Source of the DNA: Hydractinia symbiolongicarpus
Lineage: Eukaryota > Cnidaria > Hydrozoa > Anthoathecata > Hydractiniidae
NCBI RefSeq assembly: GCF_029227915.1
Contig: NC_079878.1
Location: forward strand, 22,593,501 to 22,657,500
Direction: 5' to 3'
DNA: 64,000 nucleotides
The position numbers and the translations under genes are program-made. The notes under the pieces are model-generated. The model saw only the letters and a program-made list of their open reading frames with translations, had not been told where the DNA came from and searched no databases. This document shows positions 5,454-64,000 of the stretch, piece by piece. How positions within the stretch are numbered: position 1 is the first letter of the stretch; every line of letters begins with the position of its first letter.

Positions 5454-12266
<6,813 letters not shown>

Positions 12267-18790: not shown

Positions 18791-19193
18791 CTTTAAAAAA
18801 TTACAATTAAGTTGATTTGTTTGTTTCTTAAATATATTTCCACCAACCTACATTGTGGGTAGGTAGGTGAGTGCTTTTTTATTGATCGACTTATAATTCT
18901 AGTTATCACGCGAAAAACCAGTAGTAAAACTTAAAATTATAAAGTAGCTAAATTTTTAACAAAGGCCCAAAGCATTACAATACCTCTGATAGAAGAATTA
19001 TGAAACACCGACAATACAAAATAAGGGATTTTCTGATCATGATGTTATATATCTTATTTGTTTTTATGTTTTACATGTTGACAGCAAGCGTGACCAGGAT
19101 GTTCATTTGTTTTTTTATTTCACACTGTGTTTTAATCTATATGCTCTCCTCCTTATTATTTTACTTTTAATTTTAAATTCTTATGTAGATAAA

Positions 19194-32030: not shown

Positions 32031-40738
<8,708 letters not shown>

Positions 40739-41872: not shown

Positions 41873-41944
41873 GGGCTTAACCGGGATTTGAACCCGGGGC
41901 CTCTCGCACCCAAAGCGAGAATCATACCACTAGACCATTGAGCC
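41873..41944 (-). tRNA. tRNA-Pro (anticodon TGG), one acceptor-stem mismatch
   Basis: This is a 72-nt cloverleaf with anticodon stem CTCGC/GCGAG, loop TTTGGGT (anticodon TGG), A box TGGTCTAGTGG and B box GGTTCAAATCC. The 3' acceptor strand reads TTAAGCC instead of TTGAGCC, giving a C-A mismatch in the stem. A TTTT run follows about 13 nt downstream on the minus strand. Its flanks are only partly like those of the other copies. Confidence 0.9.
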
Positions 41945-43225: not shown

Positions 43226-44473
43226 TTTGATTATATTCCATGTCTAATGCAGCATTCATTATGGATTTGTTCACTAAAATAAAAAATTTTTCAAGGGTAT
43301 TAATCGCCAGCAATAGAAGCTAGTAATCAACTGACGATCTCTTCTTTTAGTTAGCCCAACGAGTTATTAAATTAAGCAACATGTGATAACTTTACCAAGT
43401 GTTAGCCATCGTGCTTTAATATATCAAAGTTTGGTAACAAGTTCAATGTTGAAGTTACAAGTATCGACAAAAACGCAAATATTTGTAAACGTACGATCGT
43501 ATAATCAATAAAACGTCACATGTAAAGGATTATCACAACCCTAGCACTTTGCTAATTACATTCCTTCTAATACAGAGCATTGTGCATGATTTCCACGTGT
43601 GCATATGATCAATCTAATTTGTGTTCAATTAGATTTAATACTTTCTCTTAGGTATCGCCCCAACTGTCTGACTTGCCTTCTTCCCACCCATATATACGTA
43701 AATTGTTTCGTTTTTGTCTATCTTATTTTTTTCTCAATCAAATTGTTTTTTACGATTCAGCTTTCATTTTTTTTTTGAAATTTTCTTCTTCATATTTTGT
43801 GTCACTGTCACGCTTTCCACTATATCTTTGTTCGTTAAAATAACCTGTTTTTGATTTTAAAACATCATGCTGAAATTATCACGTACCATTTTCAAAAAAT
43901 TATATTGACTTTGTTATATTCCATTATGCTTTTTTGTTTCCATTTGCCTGAATTTTTAATTCATGATAAATTTCTAACCTTATTATATTTTTAATTATAC
44001 ATATAATTGTAATAAATAGTAATTAGAAAGGTAAATATAACATGGGTAAAATATTCCCAAATGAATAATTACAATTTATCATAGAAATAACAATTATTAT
44101 AGATATCAGAATTCTCATTATAGAACGACAAGCTCTACTTATTTTCTGAAAAAAAAATTTATGACCTGACGTGACAACACTTAGATCATTGATGTGTTAG
44201 GTTTTTTGACAAACTTAACATTTCTAGATGTTCAAGACGCCCTTAACTGTCAAAAGTCAGTAAATTTTTCCAAATTAAGTAGCATTTTCTTTATTATACT
44301 TAAATTGGCAAACTAAGTTTGAAAACAAATCTTGGAAACACCTTAGACTTAAAAAAAGATGACAAGCTAATTTGTGAAATAAGTTGATCAGTCTGCGTTC
44401 CGCGTAATTGTAAATGCAAAAAAATTACATTTTTTTTTACTGTACAAGATTCAGATTTTTCAAAATGAACTTC

Positions 44474-44665
44474 TTAAACACATCTACTGATAAATATATC
44501 AGAATATTTATTCTTAGGTAAAAAGTTAATTATATTAAAATTGGTAGCAATACAATATATCCGATTAAAGAGCCCCACGGGGGCAATATAGTCCAATTTA
44601 TATTCAACAGCAATAAAGCTATCAAAATTAGTGGAAGCACAACTAAAATTTTCTTTTCCCGGAAA
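44474..44665 (-). pseudogene. Possible terminal exon of an unknown gene, left-arm copy
   Basis: On the minus strand an acceptor-like CTGTTTCAG precedes a 63-codon open frame beginning FPGKENFSCAS and ending KNKYSDIFISRCV before a stop. The right arm holds an equally long indel-free counterpart (60105-60296) with acceptor TTGCTTTAG and eight amino-acid differences. No upstream exon or family match is found. It may be a relic carried by the duplication. Confidence 0.3.
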
Positions 44666-44830
44666 CTGAAACAGAAAATATTTTAGAACTAATAAAGCCA
44701 TATGTTGAAAGTCAAGCATTTGGGTGGGTGATCATTTCTGAATGTGTTTCTGCATGATATTTGAAACAGCAAATGCCTATTGTGAGTAAATGTTTTTGTT
44801 TAAGTAATATCAGCAACTTCTATATAGTGT

Positions 44831-44902
44831 GGCTCAATGGTCTAGTGGTATGATTCTCGCTTTGGGTGCGAGAGGCCCCGGGTTCAAATCCCGGTTGAGC
44901 CC
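44831..44902 (+). tRNA. tRNA-Pro (anticodon TGG)
   Basis: The 72-nt cloverleaf is complete: acceptor GGCTCAA/TTGAGCC with C73, anticodon loop TTTGGGT, T arm CCGGG-TTCAAAT-CCCGG. It has consensus internal A and B boxes. The upstream flank carries the conserved CAGCAAATGCCTATTGTGAG block and CTATATAG about 10 nt before the gene. TTTT follows within about 10 nt as a Pol III terminator. Confidence 0.97.
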
Positions 44903-45439
44903 GAATATATTTTCATATGATTAAATCTAATTTGTAAAATGACACATAAAATAAGTGGCGTATCATTATCAGAAAAATATCCCCAACATAAGAGAAGAGA
45001 CGTGAATACAATATATCACAATAATATCATAAAATCAAGCTTGCAGCAGTCTGGGTAGTGAAAGAACAATAAAAAAAGTAAATAATTTCGAATGTTATCA
45101 AAACAAAACTTTTGATAAGAAAGCTCTTGTATTTGTAAACAAACGTTTTTTTTCTCTCCAATTTTTTATATTTGTTTATGACATGCGAATCTAATCTTAC
45201 TGTCTGCAATTTTGTGACGACGACCACGATGTGTAAAGTGTTCTGCATTTTGTAAGCTTGAATATTTGAAAGAAATAACCTACCACAAACTGTTTTAATT
45301 TATTATGTAATAGTCGTGCTAAATTAACTTTTATCACATAGTTGAGTTCTTCCCGTATTTTGATTGGCTAATCTATACGAAATATATGCTATATTTTTGT
45401 TTTCTACCGATAAAAGATATTTATTTCTATAATCCAAAG

Positions 45440-45545
45440 ACCTTATACTTTTCCTCTCAGTGGCTATAGAATGCAAAAAGCTATTATTTCTCTGATTCGC
45501 TATAGCATGCAAAAAGCTATTTTTTCTCTGATTAGTTACTAGTTT
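45440..45545. repeat. Short tandem repeat (about 41 bp, 2-3 copies)
   Basis: GCTATAGCATGCAAAAAGCTATT followed by TTTCTCTGATT-type sequence recurs. The inverted counterpart is at 58905-59010 in the right arm. It is probably older than the arm duplication. Confidence 0.55.
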
Positions 45546-47220
45546 GTTCATTGTTGTCCCTGAAAAACAAGAAATTTTTAGATAATTTATTCCATCATTG
45601 TCTCATATAAAAAGAGTAATTTTATGATATCAACAACATTTAATCATAAATATTTACTATTTTTCTTTTCTTTTTTATATTGTCATTAGAAGTTTTTCTG
45701 TGAATTTAGATGAGCAAGCTTAAACTTATAGCACATTAAAGGAGTTTTTTTTGAATTTAATTATCTGTTTTGTTATGTTCGGAAGATAATTTAAAAGCCT
45801 CTTTGTGTTTGTGTTCTTCTTAAGATATTTTAACCATTAGCGAATTTGTAAACGTATTTTGCAAATGATTATTTAAACGCATGATCCAGCTCTTTATGTT
45901 CTTTCAAAGGTTTAAGACAGACAAACAATTACTTCGGTACGTCGTAAAGTTGCTAAATACATTTTAAATTGTTTCTTAAAGCCCTGTTACTTTTTAATTT
46001 ATCCAAAAGAAATACTAAACTTCCAATTAGCCAAAAAGACACATACATTTGCGAGTTCAGAAGACTCTTTGGAAAAAATTTGCAGTTTCTGTCTCCCAAC
46101 ACCATGCACTCTCTCAAACATTCTCAAAATTATCCTTCACAGACAAGAAAACATTCTTAATTTCGTTGACCTGCAAAGAGAAAGAAAAGTACTGTTTAGG
46201 CTATCAACTTGAATTGGTTGGTTATTGTTTCTCCGCAGCTTAGTATTTCTTAGCCTGGATTAAAACTATTGCATTTAATTTCGATCCACATTTTAATATC
46301 CCCCCCCCCCCCTCGGCTTCCCTAAAATGTCAAAAAAATTTAAACCATTGCTGAAAAAATTGACAGAAACGAATATCGTTCTTAGATTTTTCTAACTTTA
46401 GGAGAAAAGTCTATTTGAAGTGGGCGTCTTAAAAGGGAGCGTTTATTAAAGTTTCCTAATATGTCTTTATTTCAATAAATATCGTATTACAAGAAAAATA
46501 ATTTACGTTACACCAAGCCCGTCATTGTCGTTGTCGTCCATTATGTCAAATTCAAAACTGAAAGACTTTTGAAATATGCCTTAACTTTCGAGATAATCGC
46601 AGAAGAATCTCCTATCTAGGGAATTGACACCAACAATACACGCCAATTACGTTACGGAGCTCACAGTTATACTGCCCCTATCATTTTTATGTTGACATAG
46701 ATTTTAATATAAAATGTGGCTCCAAAATATTGATGAAATACAACAAAAAAATACATTTTTAAATTTAGTTATGAGAATGAGATATTTCAAGGCTATATTT
46801 GAATTGTTTTATAAGGAAAACCCTATAAACTCTTCTGAAAACCACCAAGACGCTTTATTACATGTGTGTTAATTATCACCATCCTCAGAAGAAATTCTCG
46901 AAACTGCCCGACGAATTCATAAAATTGTTTTTGAAGTTGGTCAGTGAAGTACTTAAACGTTTTGCCAAATTTTAAAATGCTTTGCAATCCTGTATTTACC
47001 AGCCGTTGTAAGAACACCTGAAGATGACATCCCAAAGTAGGACTTTTCCTAACACTTCTTTATACAAAATAGCGTAGTATATGCTGAAGAAAATTTGAAA
47101 TTTAAGCAGCTGGGTGGGTGATCATTTTTGAATGTATTTCTGTATGATATTTAAAACAGCAAATGCCCATTGTGGGTAAATGTTTTTGTTCAAGTAACAT
47201 CAGTAAACCCTATAGAGCGT

Positions 47221-47292
47221 GGCTCAATGGTCTAGTGGTATGATTCTCGCTTTGGGTGCGAGAGGCCCCGGGTTCAAATCCCGGTTGAGCCC
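47221..47292 (+). tRNA. tRNA-Pro (anticodon TGG)
   Basis: Identical in sequence to the 44831 gene, with a full cloverleaf and anticodon TGG. The upstream flank has the CAGCAAATGCCCATTGTGGG block and CTATAGAG near -10. TTTT lies 7 nt downstream. Confidence 0.97.
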
Positions 47293-47624
47293 AAATACAT
47301 TTTCATTGAAGATTATTTTTCTGATAATAATAAGCCATTCTTATCAGAAAAAATATGTCCAATGTGGCTAAGACAAGAGACGCAAATACAATATCTCATA
47401 TTTTTCAGGAGTCTGGATAGTGAGAGAAAAAGCAAAGAATGTTTAACAGAAGATATCCAATTTTTGAAAACAATTTCGAATGTTAAACACTTTTGAAAAC
47501 AAAACTCTTGCACATGGAAACAACGATTTTTCCCCAAATTTCATCTTTTTTACTCTGACATGGAAATGTATTCTTATTGTACATAATTGTTTGACGATCA
47601 CAATGCGTAAACTGTGGCGATATC

Positions 47625-47762
47625 TGTGCTTGCATGACCTTCGTAGCTCAGATGGGAGCTTTAAATGCACTAGGACCGCCTTTTGCAAGACCCTCTTGGA
47701 AGGCAACACCAATAGGAACTGAAGATGCTATCCTGGGTAAAAATTTTCAATAAAAATAATAA
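47625..47762 (+). mobile_element. 5'-truncated SINE tail, left arm
   Basis: It contains GCTTTAAATGCACTAGGACC, AGACCCTCTTGGA and GAACTGAAGATGCTATCC, then GGGTAAAAATTTT and an AATAAT-rich tail. This matches the 3' half of the SINE at 30855. Its mirror is at 56340-56475. Confidence 0.7.
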
Positions 47763-49443
47763 TAATAAAAGTAAAATGTTCTGTATTTGATAAACTGGAT
47801 TTTAAACCACCTATTCGAACTAAATTTATTATGCAATAGTCACGGTAAATTAACTTTTATCAGACAGTTTTGTTTGCATTTTGATTAGCTAAAATTTATC
47901 TATGTTCACCTTCTTACTTCTATATTGGGAAAAGAACTTAAATTTTCTGTGGAGCGTTTAAACTAAAATACGTCTGACTTACACCTTTACTTTTAGCTCT
48001 AAAAAACATATTACACAAGACCTGATGACGCAAATAGACGTAGTAAAGTCGAGACAATCGCAAAAGGTAATCCTATATAAGTGATGCGTACCAACGATAC
48101 GCGCCTGCTACGTTACAGAACTCACTGTTATACTACCCTTTCCACTTTTTTGTTAACATATTATAATATATTATAATGGATGAATTAATATTGATAAAAT
48201 ATTACAAAAATATATTTTTGAATTTTTGATATAAGTATGGGATTTTTCAGGCGAATAATTAAAATGTTTTATAAGGAACCTCTATAAAACCACCAAGACA
48301 GTTTATCACGTGTGTTGATTATCAGCATGCTTAGAGATAATTCTCAAATCTGCCCGACGAATTCTCTAAAATTGGTTTTGAAGTTGGTTGGTGGAATACT
48401 TGAATACAAGTATTTCCAAAATATATCTAGCGTCTGTTAGACATTCATGCATTTTTATAAATTTTGATCAAAATTTATCGTTTTCTAGGCTTATTATTTT
48501 TTTTAATTATATGTATAATTGCAATATATAGTAATTAAACATGGGCATGTCACATGTGTTAAACTTCCTAGGCAAATAATTGCAATTAATCGAAGAAATA
48601 ACAGATATGACGCGATGTTGTTGTAAGGTTCAGAAAAATTTCCAGATGTTCAGAAGCCGGTAACTCTCGAACGTCAGTTAATTTTTCCAAAATAAGTAGC
48701 ATTGTTGTTATTGTTCTTGGCAAACTTCGTTTGAAAATAAGTCTTGGGAACACCTTAAAATTTAAAAAATGATGATAAACGAGTCTGTGAAACGAATTTA
48801 CCAGTCTGCAGTTATAATTAAATACAAAAAAAGTTACACGATTTATTTTTTACTACTCCAGATTCTGATTTCTCTAAATGAACATTTTTAATAAAATGCT
48901 CATTGTAAATAAATATTTTTGTTTAGGTAACATCAAGAACACCTATAGAGTGGCTAAGAGAAGAGACATAAATACAATTTCCGTTCTATTTTAAAAGTAG
49001 CGGTATTATAAAACTACAAATATCGGAGATAATTGTTATACATCGGTTTTTAGAGCACATCTAAAAACATCAGTACAGTACAGTTAGTCTCAATATATCT
49101 AACTCGTACGATGCTCCTAATTTACAAAAGCATATATAATATCTGGGCTAAGAATCCAACTGTTTTCAGCTTGGCAACCATTTTTTCAGTTAAAAACACT
49201 TTATGAATAAAACGACGCCTACCAACGATTCTTGCGGTATATCTAATGAGTACCTGACTTCCAGATTATATTTCTGAAAATAAATCTTTACCTTTAAGAA
49301 TAATGAAAAGTTAGGTAGCTAGAGCTACTTTGTAACTTGGTGATCATTTCTAAAAATCATAGTTGTATGATATTTAAAACAGCAAATGCCTATTGTGAGT
49401 AAATATTTTTGTTCAAGTAACATCAGTTACTTCTATATAGCGT

Positions 49444-49502
49444 GGCTCATTGGTCTAGTGGTATGATTCTCGCTTTGGGTGCGAGATGCCCCGGTTGAGC
49501 CC
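49444..49502 (+). pseudogene. tRNA-Pro pseudogene lacking the T arm
   Basis: The 5' part, including the anticodon stem-loop, matches the other copies, but 13 nt spanning the T loop and B box are missing. The remaining sequence reads CCCCGGTTGAGCCC, as expected from a deletion between the two CCCGG words that flank the T loop. The acceptor also has an A7-to-T change. It cannot fold as a tRNA or bind TFIIIC normally. Confidence 0.9.
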
Positions 49503-50400
49503 CTTCATATTTTCCAAAGATCAGGTCACATTAGTATAATAGGTAACACACATATATAAAATTGTCTGGCTAAACAATGATGTAAATGTGGTGACGAATA
49601 CTTTAAGAGCAAAAACAATCGTGGGCTAAAATGTTCGCGTTTTTTGTGTTTTTGTTTTTGAAATTTCCGACAAAAGTAAATCCAACGAATATTTTAAAAT
49701 AAGTAAAACGCGCAAGTTTTTAACGCGAAAATAAGGCTTTATATCCAAACACGAAAGTCTTTTCACCTAAAAGGAAATGAAAATGAAGATAAAAAAGACT
49801 GACTTAAAGGCTAAAGAAGTCAGATCTATCTATTATCTCAAAAATTTATCGTAAATGTCAGAAATGTATTGTAAATGTCCCGCTAAAATGACTAAACTTT
49901 AGCGGGGACACTTGAGCTAAATGTTGGTGATGATAATGTTGTGGATGATGTTAGAGTTGGGTGACAATACTATTGGAAGTAACACTATTGGATGAACTAT
50001 AACAGATGATCACCTTTTGGAAGTCTGCGATGTCACATTAAAGGAGTTCCAATTGTTGTGTGAAGGCAGAACATCGAGAATGGGAATGCAATGACGGTGA
50101 CTGACAATGAGACAGATTCTGAGTGAAAGGAAGTGGGAGGTGAACCAATTTTTAATTTTAATTTCCTCTTTTGTTTTAATATGTTTTGAAAAAATATCTT
50201 ACGATCGTTTACAAAAGTTTTTTCCTGATGAATTAGTTTTTTAGGTGTTCGCGAAAATCAACACGCAAAGTATGCGACACATGTACGGTGTATAAGTAGC
50301 TAAAATTAACCAACGAAATTCAGAATGCGATGCAGTAAGCGACCTTAAGAAGAAGCAATTACATTTTTTTTGTTGACGCCGGTAACAAGAAAGTAAATAT
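49503..50400 (+). repeat. Direct repeat in the palindrome spacer, first copy
   Basis: Sequence after the tRNA pseudogene (CATATTTTCCAAA-ATCAGGTCA, GTAACACACATATATAAAATTG, AATACTTTAAGAGCAAAAACA) recurs in order after the 52234 tRNA. The parts at 49980-50400 resume at about 54175-54720, so the second copy is interrupted. Confidence 0.75.
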
Positions 50401-51411
50401 TTCAAAAACACCTATGACTTGTACATCTTTGGCTTCTAATTTGGTCTTTTTGCATTGAACCTTCCTCCCTTTATTTTACGTTCTACATTTTTTTGGTAAA
50501 TAGTAGTACAGACTATTTGGGGGAATATAATTTGTGAGTCAAGTGCTCACTGTATATGCTGCAGGAATTGTTGGTAGACGTTGTTTTATTATTTTTAATC
50601 AATAGAAAAAAAGCACTTATACAAAACTAACAAAAAATCTTAATTGTATTCAAGATAAGAAAAACTAGCTATTACTATGAAAATTGGTACAGTAACTGGG
50701 AAGACAGAAAATTTATTGTTGCCGTCAAGTATAAGTTACAGTTTTGAATTGGACATGACTGTGTCCATAGTTGTAAGCGCTTCAAACCGGTTTGCGGCAT
50801 AATTCTGAAACTTTCACAAGGACAAAATAAAAAAGTTTTGTGTGACTAATTTTGCTGTGGCAGGGTAAGAACAGTCTTTATTTTAGCAGATGTTTTATTT
50901 AACTTATTTTACAAAAAATATATATAACCCGAAATGCTGCAGCGCTGGAAGTACTTTAATAAATTTACGTCACATCGTGTATTGGCACTACAGCAATCCA
51001 CTCATAGCTTACCAGCACTTAGGCGCTCAACCTGTCGTTCAACTAATTCTAGTTTTAAGTTTATAAGTTTTAATTATTCCTAAATGTATTGACAGAGGCA
51101 AAGTTATTTTTTGTTAATAAACTCTAATTTCTGATAGTAGTAACAACTCGGAGGGATCAGAAATAAGTGTTCTATAGTTACGTCCGCTCCACTGAATTAA
51201 GCGAGGAATTGGGATGATTAATGAAACTGACAAAGCCATACGTTGTCATCACAAGTTGACCAAGCCTGGTGGATCCAAACAATATTCAAAATCCAACTCA
51301 AAAATCATAAAAAGCTAGCTGGTTCAACAATTTACTTAATCATGATCTCACACAGACTTTGTTGTTTTTATACGTCTTAATTAACGCCAAGATAAACGCC
51401 ATAACACATTT
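50401..51411. other. Spacer stretch without recognisable features
   Basis: No gene-like frame, family motif or clear repeat structure is visible here. It separates the first spacer repeat from the inverted tRNA pseudogene. Confidence 0.4.
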
Positions 51412-51482
51412 GGACTCAACTGGTATTTGAACCCGAATCCTCTTGCACCCAAAGCGAGAATCATACCACTAGGCCATACTCT
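51412..51482 (-). pseudogene. Degenerate tRNA-Pro pseudogene
   Basis: The D arm and anticodon loop (TTTGGGT) and most of the T arm remain recognisable on the minus strand. The 5' acceptor strand is lost (AGTATGGCC in place of CTCAATGGTC), the anticodon stem has a mismatch (GCAAG), and the T stem is altered (ATACCAG). The following 51484-51600 keeps the shared tRNA upstream flank, so it came from the same unit. Confidence 0.85.
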
Positions 51483-52233
51483 CCTGCCGTTGCTGAAATT
51501 ACTAGAACAAAAATATTTACTAACAATAGGCATTTGCCTTTTCAAATATCATAGAGAAATGATTTTTAGAAATGATCACGTACCCAGCCGCTTGAATTAA
51601 AGATATTATTAAAGACTTGTTTCTGCATAATTATATCTCCTTAGGTTTAATAAAAGTGTGAAAGATGTAAAAAATATATAAAAAGCAGGTCTCAAAGGCT
51701 TTTATAATTAGATTTTAACAACAGAAAATGTAAATTATATAATAATATTGCACAAAATATAATTAGCGGGTTACAGTCAATGACAGCAATTAAAAAAGAA
51801 AAATTATTATTGAGGCACACAAAAGATTTGTACATTTACTGGGTGTATAATAAACCGTATTCTTATATTACAGAGTTTTAAGGCATTTTGATTTGCTTCA
51901 TTATTCAAAATTTTCTCCGACTTGTCTCATATCACGAAGACGGGATAGCCTAATAAAAAGATAACCTAGAAAATATTTTTCTGTTTAATATTTATGGTTG
52001 TTAAGATTAAAAAGTATAAAATGTGATTAATTCATGAATTTGTCGAGTCTAATTGAAATTAATGTTTAATTTTTTTGTCAAGTTGTTATAACAAGGGTTT
52101 CCTGACACTTCTTTTAATCAACTGGGTGGGTCATTTTTTCTAAAAATTATAGTTGGATGATTTTTGAAACAGCAAATGCCTATTGTGAGTAAATTTTTTT
52201 GTTCAAGTAACATCAGTAACTTTTATATAGCGT

Positions 52234-52305
52234 GGCTCAATGGTCTAGTGGTATGATTCTCGCTTTGGGTGCGAGAGGCCCCGGGTTCAAATTCCGGTTG
52301 AGCCC
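52234..52305 (+). tRNA. tRNA-Pro (anticodon TGG)
   Basis: The 72-nt cloverleaf has one substitution in the T stem (TTCCGG, a G-T pair). Anticodon TGG, A and B boxes are intact. The upstream flank has CAGCAAATGCCTATTGTGAG and TATATAG, with TTTT downstream. It is the only apparently functional copy inside the palindrome spacer. Confidence 0.95.
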
Positions 52306-54720
52306 GCTCATATTTTCCAAATATCAGGTCATATTGGTATAATAGGTAACACACATATATAAAATTGTGTGGCTGAACAATCATGTAAAGGTGGTGGTGA
52401 ATACTTTAAGAGCAAAAACAAGCGTGACTAAAACGTTCGCGTTTTTTGCGTTTTTGTTTTTAAATTTTACGCGAAAGGTAAATCCAATGATTATTTCAAA
52501 ATAAGGTTTTTAAGCGAAAATAAGGCTTTTTTTCCAAACGCAAAAGTCTTTTCACCTAAAAAGAAATAAAAATAAAGATAAAAAAGACTGACTTAAGGGC
52601 AAAAGAAGTCAAAACAATCTTTCTCTTTTTTAATTCATCTATTACAATGATATTCTCCTTCTTTCCTTCTGCCATCGGTTTTCTGATAGCTCAATGTCCT
52701 GTGACGTTACATGATGTTGCAGCATTTTTCTTGCTTTTACCGGTGAAAATGTTATTAAACAATCGGTCAAAAGAATGCTTTTACTTACGTATCGTAAATG
52801 TCCCTGTTAACCTGGATAAATTTTTTGAACAACTTGATCTAATTGTTGATGACAGTGTCACTGGAATTTTTAACTCCCTTAAATAATGACTTTCCAGTCA
52901 TAATAAACTAGTTTATAATGACTCCCCTCCCAGTTAAGATAAACTAGTTAATAATAACTCCCCAGTCATAATAAACTAGTGAATTGTTACCCCCTAGATT
53001 CAACATTTTCTAGGAAATAATAACTCCATAAGTTTATTTCGACTCCCTTATATTTCTTTTTTGATAGATCGGTAGAAAGTCGGTTTGGTTACTAAATATA
53101 TATGACCAAAATTTTACCCGACTTTATCACACGACCAAGATCTCTCCCCGAAATTTTTGCTTTAACTAAAACATTAGTTAACAAATATTTTTTGCATCTT
53201 TTGACGTAAATTTGCACTTTGAACTGAAAATAATAAAGAGAGGGTAAAATGATTTGAAATATCTAGTTGAATTTAATAATTATCAAAGTTAATCGGCGAG
53301 AAGTGAGAAAACTTATTGTAAAAAGCACATGACTACAGAATATGAAGTACAGTACATAAGAATTTTTTCTCGAAATCCTAGCAAAGTTACAAATTAATAC
53401 AAATAGAAAAGAATAAAGACACTGTAGTCGTAAGGTAAAGTTAAGATGTTTTTTTTATAAATGCTAAAAACGTCAAAAAATGATAGAAATAGTAGAAAAC
53501 ATAACAAAGGTTTTTTAGAATGAGGCTAAGATCAAAATGAAATAAAAATCTGTTGGAAATTTGTGATGCCTTTCATGAAAGAGTTGTTAAGTGTGTATTT
53601 TTAGTATAAAAGTAATATGAGAAAAATCCTTCAGTTTGCTTACTTTTAATGACATGAAAAAAGTTCTTTTTCTGATAAATAAAAGAGGTCAAGAAATATT
53701 GTAGAATACAAAAGCATGAAAACTAAAATAACGTCAAAGTGGATTAACCCTAAGAAAAAGTACATTCCATCTGGATAGTTTTTTTGTTTCAAGTATACTT
53801 TAATTTCACTAAGTGGCTTTGCCTTTGAACTTTTCCTTAAAAAATAAGGGAAGTGTTTATTAACTGGGGGAGTCATTATTCACTAGCTTATTTCTACTCT
53901 AGGGGAATTATCACTCTCTAGCTTATTTTAACCCCGGGAGTCATCTTCTACAGGAAGTTAAGATAATCTGCTACAACGGTACTGGGGTGGACCACATTCA
54001 AGTCGGATTATATGGGACGTGGCTTAAGCCTATTAAAGTTAGTTGGCTAGTAAAATCACTTGACCGTTTCAAAAGGAAAATCGATCATTGGCAGTGCATA
54101 GAAAACTTTTATTTTGATGTTAGTATGCTTGTGTGAGTGTAAATTTCACTGATTAATCCGTTACACAGAATAGACGTAATACTATTCGATGAACTATAAC
54201 GGATGATCACATGTTGGAAGTCTGCGATGTCACGTTAAAAGAATTCGAATTGTTATTTGGAGGCAGCATATTTAGAGAATAGGAAAGCAATGACGATGAC
54301 TGACAGTGAGACAGACTTTGGATGAAAGGAATCAACCAATATTTTATTTTTAAGTTCCCTTTCTTGTTTTAAGATGTTTTGAAAAAGACCTATGATCTTG
54401 TTGAGCGCCAAAGCTTTTTCCCCATAGTTTAGCTTTAGGTGGTCGGGAAAAATCTTTCAGCAGAATTTTTGCCTTAAATAAAAATTCTGTTTCAACACAC
54501 GTGTATAAATAGGCACTAAAATTAACTAACGACATTCAGAAGAAGTACGGTAACCGAGGTTAAGAGGAAGCAATTTCATTTTTTTGTGTTTTTGCATGTT
54601 CATTTAAACTAAGAAAAGATGATTTTGACACTGCTAACAAAAAAATAAATATTACAAAAAAACTTATACTTGTACATATTTTAATATGCTCTTTTTGCAT
54701 TGTACCTTCCTCTCTTTATT
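52306..54720 (+). repeat. Direct repeat in the palindrome spacer, second copy with insertion
   Basis: The first 310 bp and the last about 550 bp match 49503-50400. Between about 52616 and 54165 lies extra sequence. Most of it is the fold-back-like element at 52880-53970. Confidence 0.7.
52880..53970. mobile_element. Fold-back-like element with subterminal repeat arrays
   Basis: The left end holds at least three copies of a motif like TAATAAACTAGT followed by ATAATGACTCCCC (52885-53050). The right end (53855-53975) holds the same motif in reverse complement, for example GGGGGAGTCATTATTCACTAG. The interior has no recognised protein. Such arrays of inverted subterminal repeats are typical of fold-back or large MITE elements. 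Exact ends and target duplication are unclear. Confidence 0.5.
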
Positions 54721-56339
54721 TTACGTTTTCGAAGTTTCTTATTAAATGCCTTATTGCTGCTATATTTTGTACCTTGTAGCTCTAGCTACCTAACTTTTTA
54801 TTATTCTTAAAGGTAAAGATTTATTTTCAGAAATATAATCTGGAAGTCAGGTGCTCATTATACATACCGCAAGAATCGTTGGTAGGCGTCGTTTTATTCA
54901 TAAAGTTTTTTAACTGAAAAAATGGCTGCCAAGCTGAAAACAGTTGGTTTCTTAGCCCAGATATTATATATGCTGTTGTAAATTAGGAGCATCGTACGAG
55001 TTAAATATATTGAGACTAACTGTACTGTACTGATGTTTTTAAATGTGCTCTAAAAACCGATGTGTAACAATTATCTCCGATATTTGTAGTTTTGTGTTAC
55101 TGCTACTTTTAAAATAGAAAGGAAATTGTATTTATGTCTCTTCTCTCAGCCACTCTATAGGTGTTATTGATGTCTATTAAACAAAAATATTTATTTAAAA
55201 TGAGCATTTTATTAAAAATGTTCATTTAGAGAAATCAGAATCTGGAGTACTAAAAAATAAATCGTGTAATTTTTTTTGTATTTAATTATAACTGCAGACT
55301 GGTCAATTCGTTTCACAGACTCGTTTATCATCATTTTTTAAATTTTAAGGTGTTCCCAAGACTTATTCTCACACAAAGTTTGCCAAGAACAATAACAACA
55401 ATGCTACTTATTTTGGAAAAATTAACTGACGTTCGAGAGTTACCGGCCACTGAACATCTGGAAATTTTTCTGATCCTTACAATAACATCTCGTCATATCT
55501 GTTATTTCTTCGATTGATTGCAATTATTTGCCTAGGAATTTTTACACATGTGACATGCCCATGTTTAATTACTATATATTGTAATTATACATATAATTAA
55601 AAAAATAATAAGCTTAGAAGGCAATAAATTTTGATCAAAATTTATAAAAATGCATGAATGTCTAACAGACGCTAGATATATTTTGGAAATACTTGTATTC
55701 AAGTATTCCATCGACCAACTTCAAAACCAATTTTAGAGAATTCGTCGGGCAGCTTTGAGAATTATCTCTAAGCATGCTGATAATCAACACACGTGATAAA
55801 CTGTCTTGGTGGTTTTTTAGAGGTTCCTTATAAAACATTTCAATTATTCGCCTGAAAAATCCCATACTTATATCAAAAATTCAAAAATATATTTTTGCAA
55901 TATTTCATCAATATTAATTCATCCATTATAATATATTATAATATGTTAACAAAAAAGTGGAAAGGGTAGTATAACAGTGAGTTCTGTAACGTTGCAGGCG
56001 CGTATGGTTGGTATGCATCACTTATATAGGATTACCTTTTGCGATTGTCTCGACTTTATTACATCTATTTGCGTCATCAGGTCTTGTGTAATATGTTTTT
56101 TGGAGCTAAAAGTAAAGGTGTAAGTCAGACGTATTTTAGTTTAAACGCTCCACAAAAAATTTAAGTTCTTTTCCCAATGTAGAAGTAAGAAGGCGAACAT
56201 AGATAAATTTTAGCTAATCAAAATGCAAACAAAACTGTCTGATGAAAGTTAATTTACCGTGACTATTACATAATAAATTTAGTTCGAATAGGTTGTTTAA
56301 AATCCAGTTTATTAAATACAGAACATTTTACTTTTATTA

Positions 56340-56475
56340 CTATTATTGCTATTGAAATTATTTACCCAGGATAGCCTCTTCAGTTCCTATTGGTATTGCT
56401 TTCCAAGAGGGTCTTGCGAAGGTGGTCCTAGTGTATTTAAAGCTCCCATCTGAGCTACGAAGGTTATGCAAGCAC
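56340..56475 (-). mobile_element. 5'-truncated SINE tail, right arm
   Basis: This is the mirror copy of 47625-47762. In reverse complement it shows AAATACACTAGGACCACC, CAAGACCCTCTTGGA and GAACTGAAGAGGCTATCC, then GGGTAAATAATTT. Confidence 0.7.
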
Positions 56476-56744
56476 AGATATCGCCACAGTTTACGCATTG
56501 TTATCGTCAAACAATTATGTACGATAAGAATTATATTTCCATGTCAGAGTAAAAAAGATGAAAATTGGGGAAAAATCGTTGTTTCCATGTGCAAGAGTTT
56601 TGTTTTCAAAAGTGTTTAACATTCGAAATTGTTTTCAAAAATTGGATATCTTCTGTTAAACATTCATTGCTTTTTCTCTCACTATCCAGACGATAAGAGT
56701 GGCTTATTATTATCAGAAAAATTATCTCCAATGAAAATGTATTT

Positions 56745-56816
56745 GGGCTCAACCGGGATTTGAACCCGGGGCCTCTCGCACCCAAAGCGAGAATCATACC
56801 ACTAGACCATTGAGCC
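56745..56816 (-). tRNA. tRNA-Pro (anticodon TGG)
   Basis: Full 72-nt cloverleaf identical to the 47221 gene, its mirror partner. The upstream flank (higher coordinates) reads CTATAGAGTGT next to the gene, and TTTT lies downstream. Confidence 0.97.
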
Positions 56817-58124
56817 ACACTCTATAGGGTTTACTGATGTTACTTGAACAACAACATTTACCCACAATGGGCATTTGCTGTTTTAAATATCATACAGAAA
56901 TACATTCAAAAATGATCACCGTCCCAGCTGCTTAAATTTCAAATTTTCTTCAGCATATACTACGCTATTTTTTAAAAAGAAGTGTTAGGAAAAGTCCTAC
57001 TTCGGCATGTCATCTTCAGATGTTCGTACAACGGCTGGTAAATACAGAATTGTAAAGAATTTTAAAATTAGGCAAAGCGTTTAAGTACTGCACTGACCAA
57101 CTTCAAAAACAATTTTATGAATACGTCGGGCAATTTCGAGAATTACTTCTGAGGATAGTGATAATTAACACACATGTAATAAAACGTCTTGGTGGTTTCC
57201 AGAAGAGTTTATAGGGTTTTCCTTATAAAACAATTCAGATACAGCCTTGAAATATCTCATGCTCATAACTAAATTTAAAAATGTTTTATTTTTGTTGTAT
57301 TTCATCAGTACTTTGGAACCACATTTTATATTAAAATTTATGTCAACATAAAAATGATAAGCGCAGTATAACTGTGAGCTCCGTAACGTAATTGGCGTGT
57401 ATTGTTGGTGTCAATTCCCTAGATAGGAGATTCTTCTGCGATTATCTCGAAAGTTTCATATTTCAAAAGTCTTTCAGTTTTGAATTTGACATAATGGACG
57501 ACAACGACAATGACGGGTTTGGTGTAATGTAAATTATTTTTCTTGTAATACGACATTTATTGAAATAAAGACATATTAGGCAACTTTAATAAACGCTCCA
57601 TTTTAAGACGCCCACTTCAAATAGACTTTTCTCCTAAAGTTAGAAAAATCTAAGAACGATATTCGTTTCTGTCAATTTTTTCAGTAATTGTTTAAAATTT
57701 TTGACATATTAGGGAAGCGAAGGGGGGGGGGAGAGATTAAAATATGGATTGTTTACAAAAATTATTTTTAGCGTATCGAAATTAAATGCAATAGTTTTAA
57801 TCCAGGCTAAGATATACTAAGCTGTGGAGAAACAACAACCAACAAATCCAAGTTGATAGCCTAAACAGTACTTTTCTTTCTCTTGGCAAGTTAACGAAAT
57901 TAAGAATGTTTTGTTGTCTGTGACGGATAATTTTGAGAATGTTTGAGAGAAAATGTCTTCTGAACTTGCAAATGTATATGAATTTTTGGCTAATTGGCAC
58001 TTTAGTATTTCTTTAGGTACATTAAAAGGTAAGAGGACTTTAAGAAACAATTTAAAATGTATTAAGCAACTTTACGACGTTCCGAAGCATATGGTCTTAA
58101 ATCTTTGAGAGAACATAAAAAGCT

Positions 58125-58545
58125 ACAATGCTGGACATAATATTATTAAAAAAGGCTGATATTTGGCTATTTCTCGAACTGGCTAAATGGTATCGCTTGT
58201 CAAAACTATGCAGCCGGCAGGCTGCAAAATCTGCGCATTGGGAGATGTGTAGGCCAGGTAAATAGCGTTGAAAATGCGCTACTGGCATTTTTTGCCATGT
58301 TTGCGATTCGGAACAATCAACACTACGAACCTCTAAGGTGCTAAAATCCGGGGTAATGAGATGTGCTGACGTCAGCAAAAATTAGTATGGGTTAAGAATT
58401 TGAAACTAACCAAATAACCTAAGTCCGTTGCGATCATTAACAAGTGAACCTTGACAAGTTCGTAATGCCTTTGTCTTTTGTAGAAACAGTGTTTATAACT
58501 GCTTGTGGGACGATAAATTAAGTCTGGGGTTGTAGATCTAGTGCT
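58125..58545. other. Extra segment present only in the right arm
   Basis: The left arm (45890) and the third copy (63650) are continuous here, passing from AGCT(C/G) directly to GATCATTTGCAAAATACG-like sequence. In the right arm about 420 bp intervene. The segment is less AT-rich and holds CAGCCGGCAGGCTGC and GTGCTGACGTCAGC. I recognise neither coding sequence nor a transposon family. Confidence 0.6.
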
Positions 58546-58904
58546 AGTTTATATGATCATTTGCAAAATACGTTTTCAAATTCGCTAATGGTTAAAATAT
58601 CTTGAGAAGAACACAAAGTACGTACAAGAGGCTTTTAAATTATCTTCCGAACATAACAAAACAGATAATCAAATTCAAAAAAAAAAAAATTCCTTCGATG
58701 TTCTTCAAGATTAAGTTTGCTCATCTAAATTCACAGAAAAAACTTCTAATGACACTATAAAAAAAAAGAAAAGGAAAAATAGTGACTATTTATGATTAAT
58801 TGTTGTTGATATCATAAAATTACTCTTTTCATATGAAAAAATGATGGAATAAATTGTCTAAAAATTTCTTGTTTTTCAAGGACAACACTTAACAAACTAG
58901 TAAC

Positions 58905-59010
58905 TAATCAGAGAAAAAATAGCTTTTTGCATTCTAGCTATAGCCAATAAGAGAAAGTATAGCTTTTTGCATTCTATAGCCAATGAGAGGAAAAATATAA
59001 GCTCTTTGTT
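58905..59010. repeat. Short tandem repeat, mirror of 45440-45545
   Basis: AATAGCTTTTTGCATTCTA and AGCCAAT(A/G)AGAG recur two to three times. Confidence 0.5.
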
Positions 59011-59532
59011 TTATAGAAGTAAAAATCTTTTATCGGTAGAAAACAAAAGTATAGCATATATTTCGTATAAATTAGCCAATCAAAATACGAGAAGAACTCA
59101 ACTATGGGATAAAAGTTAATTTAGCACGACTATTACATAATAAATCAAGACAGTTTGTGGTAGGTTGTTTCTTTTAAAAATTCAAGTTTATAAAATGTAG
59201 AACACTTTACACATCGTGGTCGTCATCACAAAATTGCGGACAGTAAGATTACATTCGCATGTCACAAACAAATATACGAAATTGGAGAGAAAAAAAACGT
59301 TTGATTACAAATAAAAGAGCTTTCTTATCAAAAGTTTTGTTTTGATAACATTCGAAATTATTTACTTTTTCTATTGTTCTTCACTACCCAGACTTCTGCA
59401 ACCTTGATTTTATGATATTAATATGAGATATACGTCTCTTCCCTTATGTTGGGGATATTTTTCTGATATGATAAGCCACTTTATTTTATGCGTCATTTTA
59501 CAATTTAGATTTAATCATATGAAAATATATTC

Positions 59533-59604
59533 GGGCTCAACCAGGATTTGAACCCGGGGCCTCTCGCACCCAAAGCGAGAATCATACCACTAGACCATTG
59601 AGCC
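59533..59604 (-). tRNA. tRNA-Pro (anticodon TGG)
   Basis: 72-nt cloverleaf; the T stem has one change giving a G-T pair (ATCCTGG). It is the mirror partner of the 44831 gene. The conserved upstream flank and a downstream TTTT are present. Confidence 0.95.
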
Positions 59605-60104
59605 ACACTACATAGAAGTTGCTGATATTACTTAAACAGAAACATTTACTCACAATAGGCATTTGCTGTTTCAAATATCATACAGAAATACATTCAGAAA
59701 TGATCACCCACCCAAATGCTTTAATTTCAAATCTTCTTCAGCATATGTTACGCTAATTTGTAGAAGAAAGTGTGAGAAGACCATTAAGGTCATGTTTCGA
59801 CATGCTCATATCATCGTCAAGTGTTTTAATCCTAATAATATATACACAAAAGTGTTAAAATATTTTAATTACAACAGCAAGTAGATGCAAAAACTTTTCT
59901 AAGGTAATTTATAAAATAAAAAAAAGAGTAACCATCTAAAATATATGTAACAACACTCCCTCAAATAATGTAATTATCCGGTGGTTAAAATGATAATGTA
60001 ACAAATGCTTTCTCGTATAATCCTTTTATTTGTTAAGATCAAGCAGTTCTTAATATAATTATTCAAGCATGGCTTTATTAGTTCCAAAATATTTTTTGCT
60101 TTAG

Positions 60105-60296
60105 TTTCCGGGAAAAGAAAATTTTAGTTGTGCTTCCTCTAATTTTGATAGCTTTATTGCTGTTGAATATAAACTGGACTATAATGCCCCCGTGAGGCTC
60201 TTTAATCGGATATATTGTATTGTTACCAACTTAAATATATTTAACGTTCTACCTAAGAATAAGTATTCTGATATATTTATCAGTAGAAGTGTTTAA
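60105..60296 (+). pseudogene. Possible terminal exon of an unknown gene, right-arm copy
   Basis: It follows acceptor-like TTGCTTTAG and encodes 63 residues from FPGKENFSCAS to KNKYSDIFISRSV before TAA. It is the counterpart of 44474-44665 with about 12 nucleotide differences and no indel. About eight of these change the amino acid, so selection on the protein is not evident. Confidence 0.3.
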
Positions 60297-61662
60297 GAAG
60301 TTCATTTTGAAAAATCTGAATCTTGTACAGTAAAAAAAAATCGTGTAATTTTTTTGCATTTACAATTACGCAGAACGCAGACTACGCAGACTTGTCAACT
60401 CATTTCACAAATTCGCTTTTCATCATATTTTAAGTCTAAGGTGTTCCCAAGACTTGTTTTCAAACTTAGTTTGCCAATTTAAGTATAATAAAGAAAATGC
60501 TACTTAATTTGAAAAAAATTACATACATTTGACAGTTAAGGGCGTCTTAAACATCTGGAAATTTTTCCTGTGATTGATAAGTTTGTCAAAAAACCTAGCA
60601 CATCAATAATCTAAGTGTTGTCGCGTCGGGTCCTAAAAATTTTTTTCAGAAAATAAGTAGAGCTTGACGTTCTATAATGAGAATTCTGATATCTATAATA
60701 AAATTTCGTCATGTTTGTTATTTCTATGATAAATTGTAATTGTTCTTTTGGGAATATTTTACACATGTTATATTTCCCCTTCTAATTAATATATATTATA
60801 ATTATATATATAATTAAAGAAATATTAAGGCTAGAAATTTATAATTTTTTATGAAAAATTTATAAGAAATGCATGAAGGTCTAACACACGCTAGATATGA
60901 TTTGAGAGTACTTGTATTCAAGCACTTCGGCGACCAAGTTTAAAAGCAATTTTAGGTGCGTATCTTTGGTACGGCTTAATCTATTTAGGAGATTCTTCTG
61001 CGACTATCTCGAGTTTGCCACGTCTAGTCGCGTAATCGAGTTTTGTGTAATATGATTTTTGGAACTAAAGGTAAAGTTTTATGTCAAAAGTCTTTCAGTT
61101 TCAATAAACCACAAAAAATTTAAGTCCTTTTCCAATTGTTGTCCTGGCCGTAAAAGAAAGAAGGCGTACATAGAGTAATATTAGCTAATCAAAATGCAAA
61201 AAAAACCATATGATAAAAGGTAATTTGCCATGACTATTACATAATAAATTTAGTTTGTGTAGGTTGTTTCTTTTCAAAATTCAAATTATATAATACAGAA
61301 CACATTACACATTGCGGTCGCTGTCAAAAAATTGTGGACAATAAGATTACATTTCCATGTCACAAACAAACAGTCGAAATTGGAAAAAAAATATTTGTTT
61401 ACATGTGAGTGTGTTTTGCTTGCAAAAGTGTTTAACGTTCGAAGTTGTTTTTAGACACCTTCTGTCAAACATTCGTTACTTTTTCTTTCATTACCCAGAC
61501 TCCTGAAAGTTTTGCGAGTTATATTTTACATGAAAAATATGAGATGTCGTATTTGCCTCTTTTCTTTTAGCCACATTGGACATATTTTGTCTCATAATAA
61601 TAAGCTACTTTATTTTTTTGTGTTATTTTACAAATTAAATTTAATCATATGAAAATATATTC

Positions 61663-61734
61663 GGGCTCAACCGGGATTTGAACCCGGGGCCTCTCGCACC
61701 CAAAGCGAGAATCATACCACTAGACCATTGAGCC
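61663..61734 (-). tRNA. tRNA-Pro (anticodon TGG)
   Basis: Full 72-nt cloverleaf identical to the 44831 gene, with B box GGTTCAAATCC and anticodon TGG. The upstream flank has CAGCAAATGCCTATTGTGAG, and TTTT lies downstream. Confidence 0.97.
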
Positions 61735-64000
61735 ACACTATTTAGAAGATACTGATATTACTTAAACAAAAACATTTACTCACAATAGGCATTTGCTGTT
61801 TCAAGTATCATACAGAAATGATTTTTACAAGTGATCACCCACCCAGCTGCTTAAATTTCAAATTTTCTTCAGCATATACTACGCTATTTTGTAAAAAGAA
61901 GTGTTAGGAAAAATCCTGCTTTGTCATGTCATCTTCAGGTGTTTTTACAACAGCTGGTAAATACAAGACTGAACGAATTTTGAAATTTGAAGTAGATTCA
62001 CACCTTCAACATGCAACAATATCGCGAAAAGTATAATTAGCCAGTTGTAGTTAATGAAAGAAATTATAGAGAAATAAAATATTATTGTGCTCCGCAAAGC
62101 AAGCGAAGGATAAGTCGGTATATAGTGCATTTTCATACTTTATAGTTTTTTTTTAGATTCTTTTTTTTGCTTCATTATTTAATATAGATCCGTATGTGTC
62201 TTTCTACTATTATTGGATATTTGTTACGATTAAGCAATAATAATTATTTAATAGGTGTTTGATTATTGCGCAACTCAGTTATTTTTTGCCAATAGCTAAT
62301 GCCCACTGAAACATTATTGATAGTTCGAGTATCAAAATTAAATATGGTAACCTTAAATGTAAAGAAGAACAAAGCTAAAGAGGAAAACATCAAAAATGAA
62401 AAAAAAAGATGTGTAAAGAGAAAAGAACATGACATTCATCTTTGGGATTGTTTACCCAGATAAGTAAAAACAAGGTTGCAAAGCTTGCGAGAAATCTAAA
62501 ATTTATAATAACATCTCCTGGAGATAAAAAAAAAGCATGAAAGTCTTAGAAAGTAGATATGTTTTGGAGGCATTTGTTGCTTTGGTAAAGTGCTTAAGTA
62601 CTTCACTGACCAACTTCATAAACATTTTTATGAATTCGTCGGGCAGTTTCGAGAATTACTTCTGAGGATGGTGATAATTAACACACATGTAATAAAACGT
62701 CTTGGTGGTTTTCAGAAGAGTTTATAGGGTTTTCTTTATAGAACAATTCAAATATAGTCTTGTAATATCTCATTTTCATAACTAAATTTAAAAATGTATT
62801 TTTTTGTTGTATTTCATCAATATTTTGGAGCCACATTTTATATTAAAATTCATGTCAACATAAGAATGATAAGCGCAGTATAACCGTGAGCTGCGCAACG
62901 TAATTGACGTGTATTGTTGGTGTCAATTCCCCAGATGGGAGATTCTTCTGCGATTATCTCGAAAGTTAAGGCATATGTCAAAAGTCTTACAGTTTTGAAT
63001 TTGACATAATCGACGACAACGACAATGACGGGCTTGGTGTAACGTAAATTATTCTTCTTGTAATACGACATTTATTGAAATAAAGACATATTAGGAAACT
63101 TTAATAAACGGTCCCTTTTAAGACGCCCACTTCAAATAGACTTTTCTCCTAAAGTTAGAAAAATCTAAGAACGATATTCGTTCCTGACAATTTTTTCAGC
63201 AATTTTTGACATTTTAGGGAAGCGGAGAGGGGGGGGGGGTAGATTAAAGTATGGATCGAAATTAAATGCAATAATTTTAATCCAGGCTAAGAAATACTAA
63301 GCTGCGGAGAAACAATAACCAAAAAATCCAAGTTGATAGCCTAAACAGTACTTTTCTTTCTCTTTGCAGGTCAACGAAATTAAGAATGTTTTCTTGTCTG
63401 TGAAGGATAGTTTTGAGAATCTTTGAGAGAGTGCATGGTGTTTGCAGACAGAAAATGCAAATTTTGTCCAAAGAGTCTTCTGAACTCGCAAATGTATGTG
63501 ACTTTTTGGCTAATTGGCACTTTAGTATTTCTTTCAGGTAAATTAAAAGGTAAGAGGCCTTTAAGAAACAATTTAAAATGTATTAAGCAATTTTACGACG
63601 TACTGAAGCATATTGTTAGTCTGTCTTAAACCTTTGAGAGAACATAAAGAGCTGGATCATGCGTTTAAATGATCATTTGCAAAATACGTTTACAACTTCG
63701 CTAATGGTTAGAATATCTTAAAAAGAACACAAAGTACGTACAAGAGGCTTTTAAATTATCTTCCGAACATAACAAAACAGATAATCAAATTAAAAAAAAC
63801 TCCTTCAATGTGCTATAAGTTTAAGCTTGCTCATCTAAATTCACAGAAAAAAACTTGACAATATAAAAAAGAGAAGAAAAATAGTGAATATTTACGATTA
63901 AATGTTGTTGATATCATAAAATTACTATATTTATATGACACAATAATGGAATAAATTATTTAAAAATTTCTTGTTTTTCAAGGACAACAATCAACAAACT
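61735..64000 (-). repeat. Third copy of the tRNA-Pro unit, running off the window
   Basis: 62585-64000 matches the minus orientation of 45540-47000 (for example 63297-63571 with 45969-46249, and the G-run at 63229 with the C-run at 46302). 61735-61985 matches 46975-47220. About 590 bp at 61990-62580 are extra. Part of that resembles 51740-51990 next to the degenerate tRNA pseudogene. Confidence 0.8.

What the first reader, a model, noticed from the sequence alone, without database searches (positions are those of the whole stretch)
43957..60855. 17-kb imperfect palindrome built around tRNA-Pro genes
Two arms of about 5.4 and 6.1 kb are inverted copies. Each carries two tRNA-Pro(TGG) genes, a truncated SINE, a short tandem repeat and the same possible exon. 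The left arm itself consists of two tandem tRNA-led units, so head-to-tail duplication preceded or accompanied inversion. Long palindromes containing Pol III genes are unusual and could be hotspots for fork stalling, hairpins and copy-number change.
Basis: seen in the sequence. Interest (0 to 1): 0.75.

Follow-up and report, generated by a model that had tools for sequence, protein, structure and literature searches.

The report
Inverted duplication inside a tRNA-Pro cluster
In an unnamed animal-like genome, a stretch holding two proline-tRNA gene units was copied and flipped beside the original inside a larger cluster of such genes; this is real but ordinary gene-cluster growth.

Summary
Window 43963-49328 and 60845-54776 are inverted copies, 94.1% identical over 5237 aligned bases, around a 5.4-kb spacer. 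Each arm has two tRNA-Pro(TGG) genes, the same SINE-like fragment and the same two-copy repeat. But the window cuts a larger object: 14 tRNA-Pro(TGG) genes in 48.6 kb, running 26 kb past the window's right edge. The arms are two of its units. Trees pair b with d and group a with e and g: tandem duplication made the unit types, then a two-unit block was copied in inverted orientation, probably from right to left. Arms differ at 309 of 5237 aligned bases and by 27 indels, so a fold-back assembly error is unlikely, and nothing here shows a present-day hotspot; no reads were seen. No protein-family match was found in the frames tested. The one surprising detail is a 57-base stretch before the tRNA genes, alike between distant cluster members where other flanks are not. 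Its core matches only this cluster, and it is unlike the U1/U2 upstream DNA tested. Its function is untested.

The parts
41873..41944 (-). tRNA-Pro(TGG) z, leftmost cluster member; one acceptor-stem change
   Evidence: ARAGORN and Rfam; sequence
43963..49328 (+). left arm: units a and b, inverted copy of 60845-54776
44774..44830 (+). 57-base upstream element of unit a; comparable stretches lie before the other cluster tRNA genes except g, which keeps only the last 41 bases or so
44831..44902 (+). tRNA-Pro(TGG) of unit a
45463..45533 (.). 36-base repeat, 2 copies; counterpart 58980-58906
47221..47292 (+). tRNA-Pro(TGG) of unit b
47617..47774 (.). fragment of a dispersed SINE-like repeat, shared with unit d, absent from f and h
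49329..54775 (.). spacer between the arms; holds units p and c
49339..49494 (+). unit p: upstream element plus truncated tRNA-Pro
51408..51598 (-). degenerate tRNA-Pro relic with its upstream flank
52234..52305 (+). tRNA-Pro(TGG) of unit c, one T-stem change
52855..53981 (.). insertion of a dispersed repeat (listed copies 73-91% identical, on many chromosomes; 40 of 205 candidates were scored)
54776..60845 (-). right arm: units d and e, probable source of the left arm
56328..56484 (.). right-arm copy of the SINE-like fragment
56745..56816 (-). tRNA-Pro(TGG) of unit d
59533..59604 (-). tRNA-Pro(TGG) of unit e, one T-stem change
61663..61734 (-). tRNA-Pro(TGG) of unit f, outside the arms, same strand as the right arm
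62581..64000 (-). the part of unit g inside the window; it continues to 65071 beyond the window, tRNA at 64633-64706

Best explanation
This is a locally grown tRNA-Pro(UGG) gene cluster in an animal-like genome. Shown: 14 tRNA-Pro(TGG) genes in 48.6 kb, the order and strands of the units, their sequence relations, and an inverted two-unit copy. Inferred: head-to-tail duplication of a unit of 2-3 kb (tRNA with its upstream flank first) made diverged unit types. Later a block of two neighbouring units (e and d) was copied in inverted orientation next to the spacer units p and c, giving a and b. The copying step was probably break-induced or template-switch replication, or recombination between opposed tRNA units; the data do not tell these apart. 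The tRNA genes probably act as ordinary redundant Pol III genes; the inverted layout itself probably has no function.
For: Cluster extent and strands: 14 genes, 41873-90489 in window coordinates, one on -, three on +, then ten on -. Unit a DNA outside the tRNA, and unit b/d DNA outside the SINE-like fragment, matched only this locus among the candidates scored (18 of 335, 40 of 1268). Trees: in the unit heads b+d 100/100 and a+e+g 95/95, with f+h 90/97; in the unit tails the single split b+d against a+e+g has 100/100. SINE-like fragment in b and d but not in f or h. The right arm is followed by f, g, h in the same orientation, with f/h 91% and e/g 85-89%. The junction from c into the right arm has an older relative at p: 49976-50482/54173-54727 at 70% and 50524-50590/54832-54898 at 81%. 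At the gathering threshold Rfam finds only tRNA in the window (7 of 7); 0 of 5 cluster frames match Pfam.
Against: The two halves of the arm pair differ in divergence: a/e 214 of 2943 sites, b/d 95 of 2294 (Fisher p 1.5e-6; change point near 46351, 0 of 500 block permutations as strong). One copying event does not predict this without later conversion or unequal rates. Unit a is as close to g as to e, and the order within a, e, g is unresolved, so the source of unit a is not fixed. No relative's genome and no reads were available.
Confidence: 0.85

Rival explanations
1. The inverted arms are kept alike by ongoing gene conversion, so the inversion is older than the divergence suggests, and the palindrome is an active recombination structure.
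For: The b/d half is more alike (4.1% differing) than the a/e half (7.3%), with a clear step; a, e and g share states in a mosaic way.
Against: Different mutation rates, or conversion of a or e by g, explain the step too. The longest exact run between arms is 101 bases, and 27 indels persist.
Confidence: 0.25
2. Assembly artefact: a fold-back or mis-joined contig.
For: No reads were examined; the assembly's provenance is not known.
Against: A fold-back join gives near-identical arms (inference); here 309 of 5237 aligned bases and 27 indels differ, in a contig of 36 Mb. Allelic misplacement does not explain reverse orientation with further related units beside the right arm.
Confidence: 0.03
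3. The tRNA unit is, or was carried by, a mobile element that inserted in both orientations.
For: tRNA genes and SINEs are related in many genomes (recalled); both strands are used here.
Against: With unit a the 6 matches outside C4 all cover the tRNA; with unit b/d the matches outside C4 all lie at query positions 205-371, the SINE-like fragment. Only the best candidates were scored: 18 of 335 and 40 of 1268.
Confidence: 0.03
4. A working palindrome: the inverted layout is selected, for instance to keep tRNA copies alike or for chromatin organisation.
For: tRNA bodies of a, b and d are identical over 72 bases.
Against: Of 41 listed places 15 match the 72 bases exactly, 6 of them single or paired genes on C3, C8, C10 and C14, so exact copies need no palindrome; e in the right arm and c in the spacer carry T-stem changes.
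Confidence: 0.05

Closest known systems
Locally duplicated nuclear tRNA gene clusters of eukaryotes
   Same: Many copies of one isoacceptor on both strands, with degenerate copies between (description of the kind recalled).
   Different: Units are long and diverged, and one two-unit block was copied in inverse. The plant survey PMC12652284 (search listing and start of abstract only) concerns tandem tRNA duplication; not read further.
Inverted segmental duplications / inverted copy-number variants, such as ODIRA products
   Same: A block exists in both orientations close together; the inner arm end coincides with the short inverted repeat GTAGCT-AG-AGCTAC.
   Different: ODIRA as described in PMC10766186 (passages) gives an inverted triplication with junctions at 5-6-base inverted repeats interrupted by 40-80 bases. 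Here b/d exists twice with a 5.4-kb spacer, and the short repeat is interrupted by 2 bases.
Tandem tRNA-Pro/tRNA-Trp arrays on C1 of the same genome
   Same: tRNA-Pro(TGG) multigene arrays, both strands used.
   Different: About 760-base units with tRNA-Trp(CCA) and other substitutions in the tRNA body; the one C1 gene compared has an upstream flank unlike the cluster's.

Membership tests
tRNA gene cluster | several tRNA genes that fold and carry an anticodon, close together | tested here: met
   14 ARAGORN genes, all Pro(TGG), in 48.6 kb; 7 of 7 in the window above the Rfam tRNA threshold
tRNA gene cluster | transcribed by Pol III | not testable with these tools
   no expression data; short T-runs lie 3' of most of the genes
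Inverted segmental duplication | at least 1 kb, at least 90% identical, opposite orientation (definition recalled) | tested here: met
   94.1% over 5237 aligned bases, gaps not counted; local blocks with gaps counted 88.2-95.7%
ODIRA product | inverted copy between two direct copies (triplication) | tested here: not met
   b/d block: 2 full-length matches; a-type exists three times, but in the order + - -
ODIRA product | junction at short inverted repeat interrupted by 40-80 bases | tested here: not met
   6-2-6 repeat at the inner end; arms 5447 bases apart
Type-3 (snRNA-type) Pol III promoter upstream of the tRNA genes | upstream element matches the proximal element of the genome's own snRNA genes | tested here: inconclusive
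   z -1.0 to 0.8 against 100 bases upstream of U1 and U2 in one locus, L047, which speaks against; no intact U6 was found to compare
Mobile element | unit dispersed in the genome | tested here: not met

The most novel reading that the evidence does not exclude
The 57-base stretch before these tRNA genes is a cluster-specific Pol III control element, kept by selection, that marks the C4 tRNA-Pro(UGG) genes as a separately regulated set; the inverted duplication merely multiplied it.
Probability: 0.2. Interest if true: 0.45.

Novelty: new member of a known kind. Interest (0 to 1): 0.22.

Why it matters
As a palindrome it matters little: it shows how a tRNA cluster grows by tandem and then inverted copying. 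The cluster does give an ordered series (SINE-like fragment, unit trees) that could be used to study exchange between inverted copies. If the upstream element is functional, one isoacceptor family would have a private promoter-like module, which would be testable by tRNA sequencing.

Tried and rejected
Coding content: 10 translated frames against Pfam at E 0.01. Five are in the cluster: three in the left arm, one in unit g, one in the spacer; 0 of 5 matched. Two further cluster frames of 90 aa or more (45027-45299 and 58097-58381) were not run. Of five frames from neighbouring genes 4 matched, 3 of them over Pfam's cut-off. Six shared open frames of 50 codons or more between the arms: differences 19, 19, 20 by codon position in sum, but one of the six has 7 of 10 at third positions.

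Other RNAs: Rfam over the window gave 7 matches at the gathering threshold, all tRNA.

Mobile-element idea: made unlikely.

snRNA-type promoter idea: the element sits at -57, with a TATA-like stretch near -30 in some far members, which looked like PSE plus TATA (recalled layout). U1 and U2 upstream stretches share CCACAAGCA with each other (no shuffle control for that pair) and nothing above shuffles with the element. U6 as a control failed: the Rfam search gave 4 matches, 1 over threshold; read on its minus strand that one (L025) is a diverged U6-like copy; a 40-base core with up to 3 mismatches gave 0.

Organism: not identified; a protein search was not tried, because by its description it names proteins and sources, not organisms. 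GC is 31-37% in 10 other stretches and 26-36% in 2-kb pieces of the window.

Literature: 8 answered full-text searches. None of the papers listed was, by title or start of abstract, about an inverted nuclear tRNA-Pro cluster; three lists were cut (12 of 31, 10 of 19, 8 of 12), and most subscription papers are not held.

Mended on re-check: the element's absence elsewhere was first overstated; one search also misses known distant members. For that, and because upstream flanks outlast downstream ones even among close units, the novel reading went from 0.25 to 0.2.
Full report
WHAT IS THERE. They run 43963-49328 and 60845-54776 with a 5447-base spacer. Over 5237 aligned bases 4928 are identical (94.1%), and 27 indels separate them. 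The best inverted self-match in 20 Markov-1 shuffles was 51.8 bits, against 3077 bits for the strongest block here. The four tRNA-Pro(TGG) genes, the SINE-like fragment and the two-copy 36-base repeat are in both arms.

THE LARGER OBJECT. The window lies at C4:22593501-22657500 of a 481-Mb assembly in 76 contigs. Reading six adjoining 10-kb stretches (one on the left, five on the right) shows that the array is cut by the window's edge. In window coordinates 14 tRNA-Pro(TGG) genes lie between 41873 and 90489: one on -, three on +, then ten on -. Two relics lie in the spacer: a truncated + copy at 49339 and a degenerate - copy at 51408. I name the units z (41873), a (44831), b (47221), p (49339, relic), c (52234), d (56745), e (59533), f (61663), g (64633), h (65954), i (72822), and a far group of four (82352, 83920, 86768, 90417).

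HISTORY. In a tree of 10 unit heads b pairs with d (100/100), f with h (90/97), p with c (99/99), and a, e and g form a group (95/95) whose inner order is open. In a tree of 5 unit tails the one split b+d against a+e+g has 100/100. Unit types a/e/g, b/d and f/h are 71-84% alike, the inverted pairs 93-97%, so the tandem types are older. The SINE-like fragment lies in b and d but not in f or h, so it entered the b/d ancestor before the inverted copying. The right arm continues into f, g and h on the same strand, with f/h at 91% and e/g at 85-89%. The passage from unit c into the right arm has an older relative at p (70% and 81%). Both points favour the right arm as the source; this is an inference.

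UNEVEN DIVERGENCE. The a/e half differs at 214 of 2943 sites, the b/d half at 95 of 2294 (Fisher p 1.5e-6). A change-point scan puts the step near 46351, and none of 500 block permutations gave as strong a step. Unit a is 93.2% like e and 92.7% like g, while e and g are 90.4% alike. Later conversion, either between b and d or from g-like units into the outer half, would explain this; unequal rates would too. I cannot decide.

BREAKPOINTS. At the inner end the arms agree up to the short inverted repeat GTAGCT-AG-AGCTAC and then part at once; at the outer end likeness fades near 43963/60845. A six-base repeat near one end is weak evidence. I compared it with ODIRA as described in passages of PMC10766186: the features named there, an inverted triplication and an interruption of 40-80 bases, are not met.

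ARTEFACT AND INSTABILITY. A fold-back error would leave nearly identical arms; 5.9% of aligned bases differ here. No reads were available. The longest exact run between arms is 101 bases, and the arms are 5.4 kb apart, so the claim of a present hotspot has no support in these data, although it is not excluded.

CONTENTS. Unit a finds this locus plus 6 places outside C4, all over the tRNA (18 of 335 candidates scored). Unit b finds this locus plus places that cover only the SINE-like fragment (40 of 1268 scored). The spacer contains a dispersed repeat at about 52855-53981. No coding signal was established: 0 of 5 cluster frames matched Pfam, with 2 of the 7 listed frames of 90 aa or more not run. 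By codon position the arms' shared frames are even in sum, but one 52-codon frame (46981-46825, -) has 7 of 10 differences at third positions, which I did not follow.

THE UPSTREAM ELEMENT. Between near units (a, b, c, d, e, f, h) and the far four, the 70 bases before the tRNA align above shuffles (28 pairs, median z 5.6, range 1.5 to 7.5). The 70 bases after the gene (median 0.1, range -1.8 to 3.1) and bases -140 to -71 (median 0.8, range -0.5 to 4.0) mostly do not. Unit g was left out: its upstream flank is replaced beyond about -41. Against six tRNA-Pro genes elsewhere the upstream median is -0.07 and the maximum 3.5 (66 pairs); L019 was left out there as a near-copy of L018. The core RCCYATTRTGAGTAAA, exact, matches 9 places in the genome, all in this cluster: before a, c, e, f, h, three of the far four, and relic p. 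Units b, d, z, i and one far unit carry variants of it. About 2 exact matches would be expected by chance with even base use (my arithmetic); the reversed pattern gave 0. The 70-base stretch finds 10 places, all in the near part of this cluster; it misses the far units, z and i, so it cannot exclude distant relatives elsewhere.

HOW TO READ IT. Shared descent alone would be expected to keep -70 to -1 and -140 to -71 alike to the same degree, so selection on the near stretch is one reading. Two facts weaken it. Among near units the downstream flank is already much less alike (median z 2.2) than both upstream stretches (21.4 and 17.9), so downstream DNA may simply change faster. And gene conversion around the tRNA with uneven ends is possible. 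The element is not the U1/U2 upstream sequence of the locus tested (z -1.0 to 0.8); U6 could not be tested.

GENOME CONTEXT. The same genome has other multigene arrays on both strands: tRNA-Pro/tRNA-Trp arrays on C1, and a very large array on C9 with U2, U1, 5S rRNA, tRNA-Arg and histone-like sequence. A 5S-U1-U2 linkage is reported in the coral Acropora (PMC8167085, passages), and that paper says the linkage was first reported in molluscs; this hints at, but does not show, an invertebrate host.

VERDICT. A true but ordinary inverted duplication within a tRNA-Pro cluster. Interest 0.22.

Noticed in passing
G000:C9, about 7.1-11.4 Mb; L039, L047, L058; displaced copy L038 (C4:15.38 Mb): A repeat of about 5.85-5.88 kb. 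In 4 of 4 loci read: tRNA-Arg(ACG), U2 and U1; in 3 of 4 also 5S rRNA on the other strand and a histone 3' stem-loop. H2A- and H1-like frames in L047 by eye only. A U2 core (up to 3 mismatches) matches 853 places genome-wide, 464 on + and 389 on -; of the 100 rows shown 99 are on C9. The 42 U1 places scored, 41 of them on C9, lie on both strands, partly in blocks. It may deserve its own study.
   Followed up: partly
G000:C1:27.68-27.78 Mb (+) and 31.46-31.55 Mb (-); L016, L017, L022-L024: Tandem arrays of tRNA-Pro(TGG) and tRNA-Trp(CCA), unit about 760 bases. A 35-base tRNA-Pro core matches 197 places genome-wide; the 100 rows shown all lie on C1.
   Followed up: partly
L018 and L019 (C3:33.80 and 30.97 Mb): Two tRNA-Pro(TGG) genes with nearly identical flanks (140 bases before, 60 after compared) 2.8 Mb apart.
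   Followed up: no
window 18993-27870 and about 32059-40735: Two neighbouring multi-exon genes on +, by eye glutamate-carboxypeptidase-II-like; one exon of the first matches Peptidase_M28, the last exon of the second TFR_dimer. The second ends 1.1 kb before tRNA z.
   Followed up: partly
window 36334-36659: Perfect TAAA repeat, 81.5 copies.
   Followed up: no
window 11343-11687: Exon with hexapeptide repeats (Pfam Hexapep over cut-off); the GMPPB_C match, a mannose-1-phosphate guanylyltransferase domain, is below its cut-off.
   Followed up: no
window 46825-46981 (-): A 52-codon frame open in both arms, with 7 of its 10 arm-to-arm differences at third codon positions.
   Followed up: no
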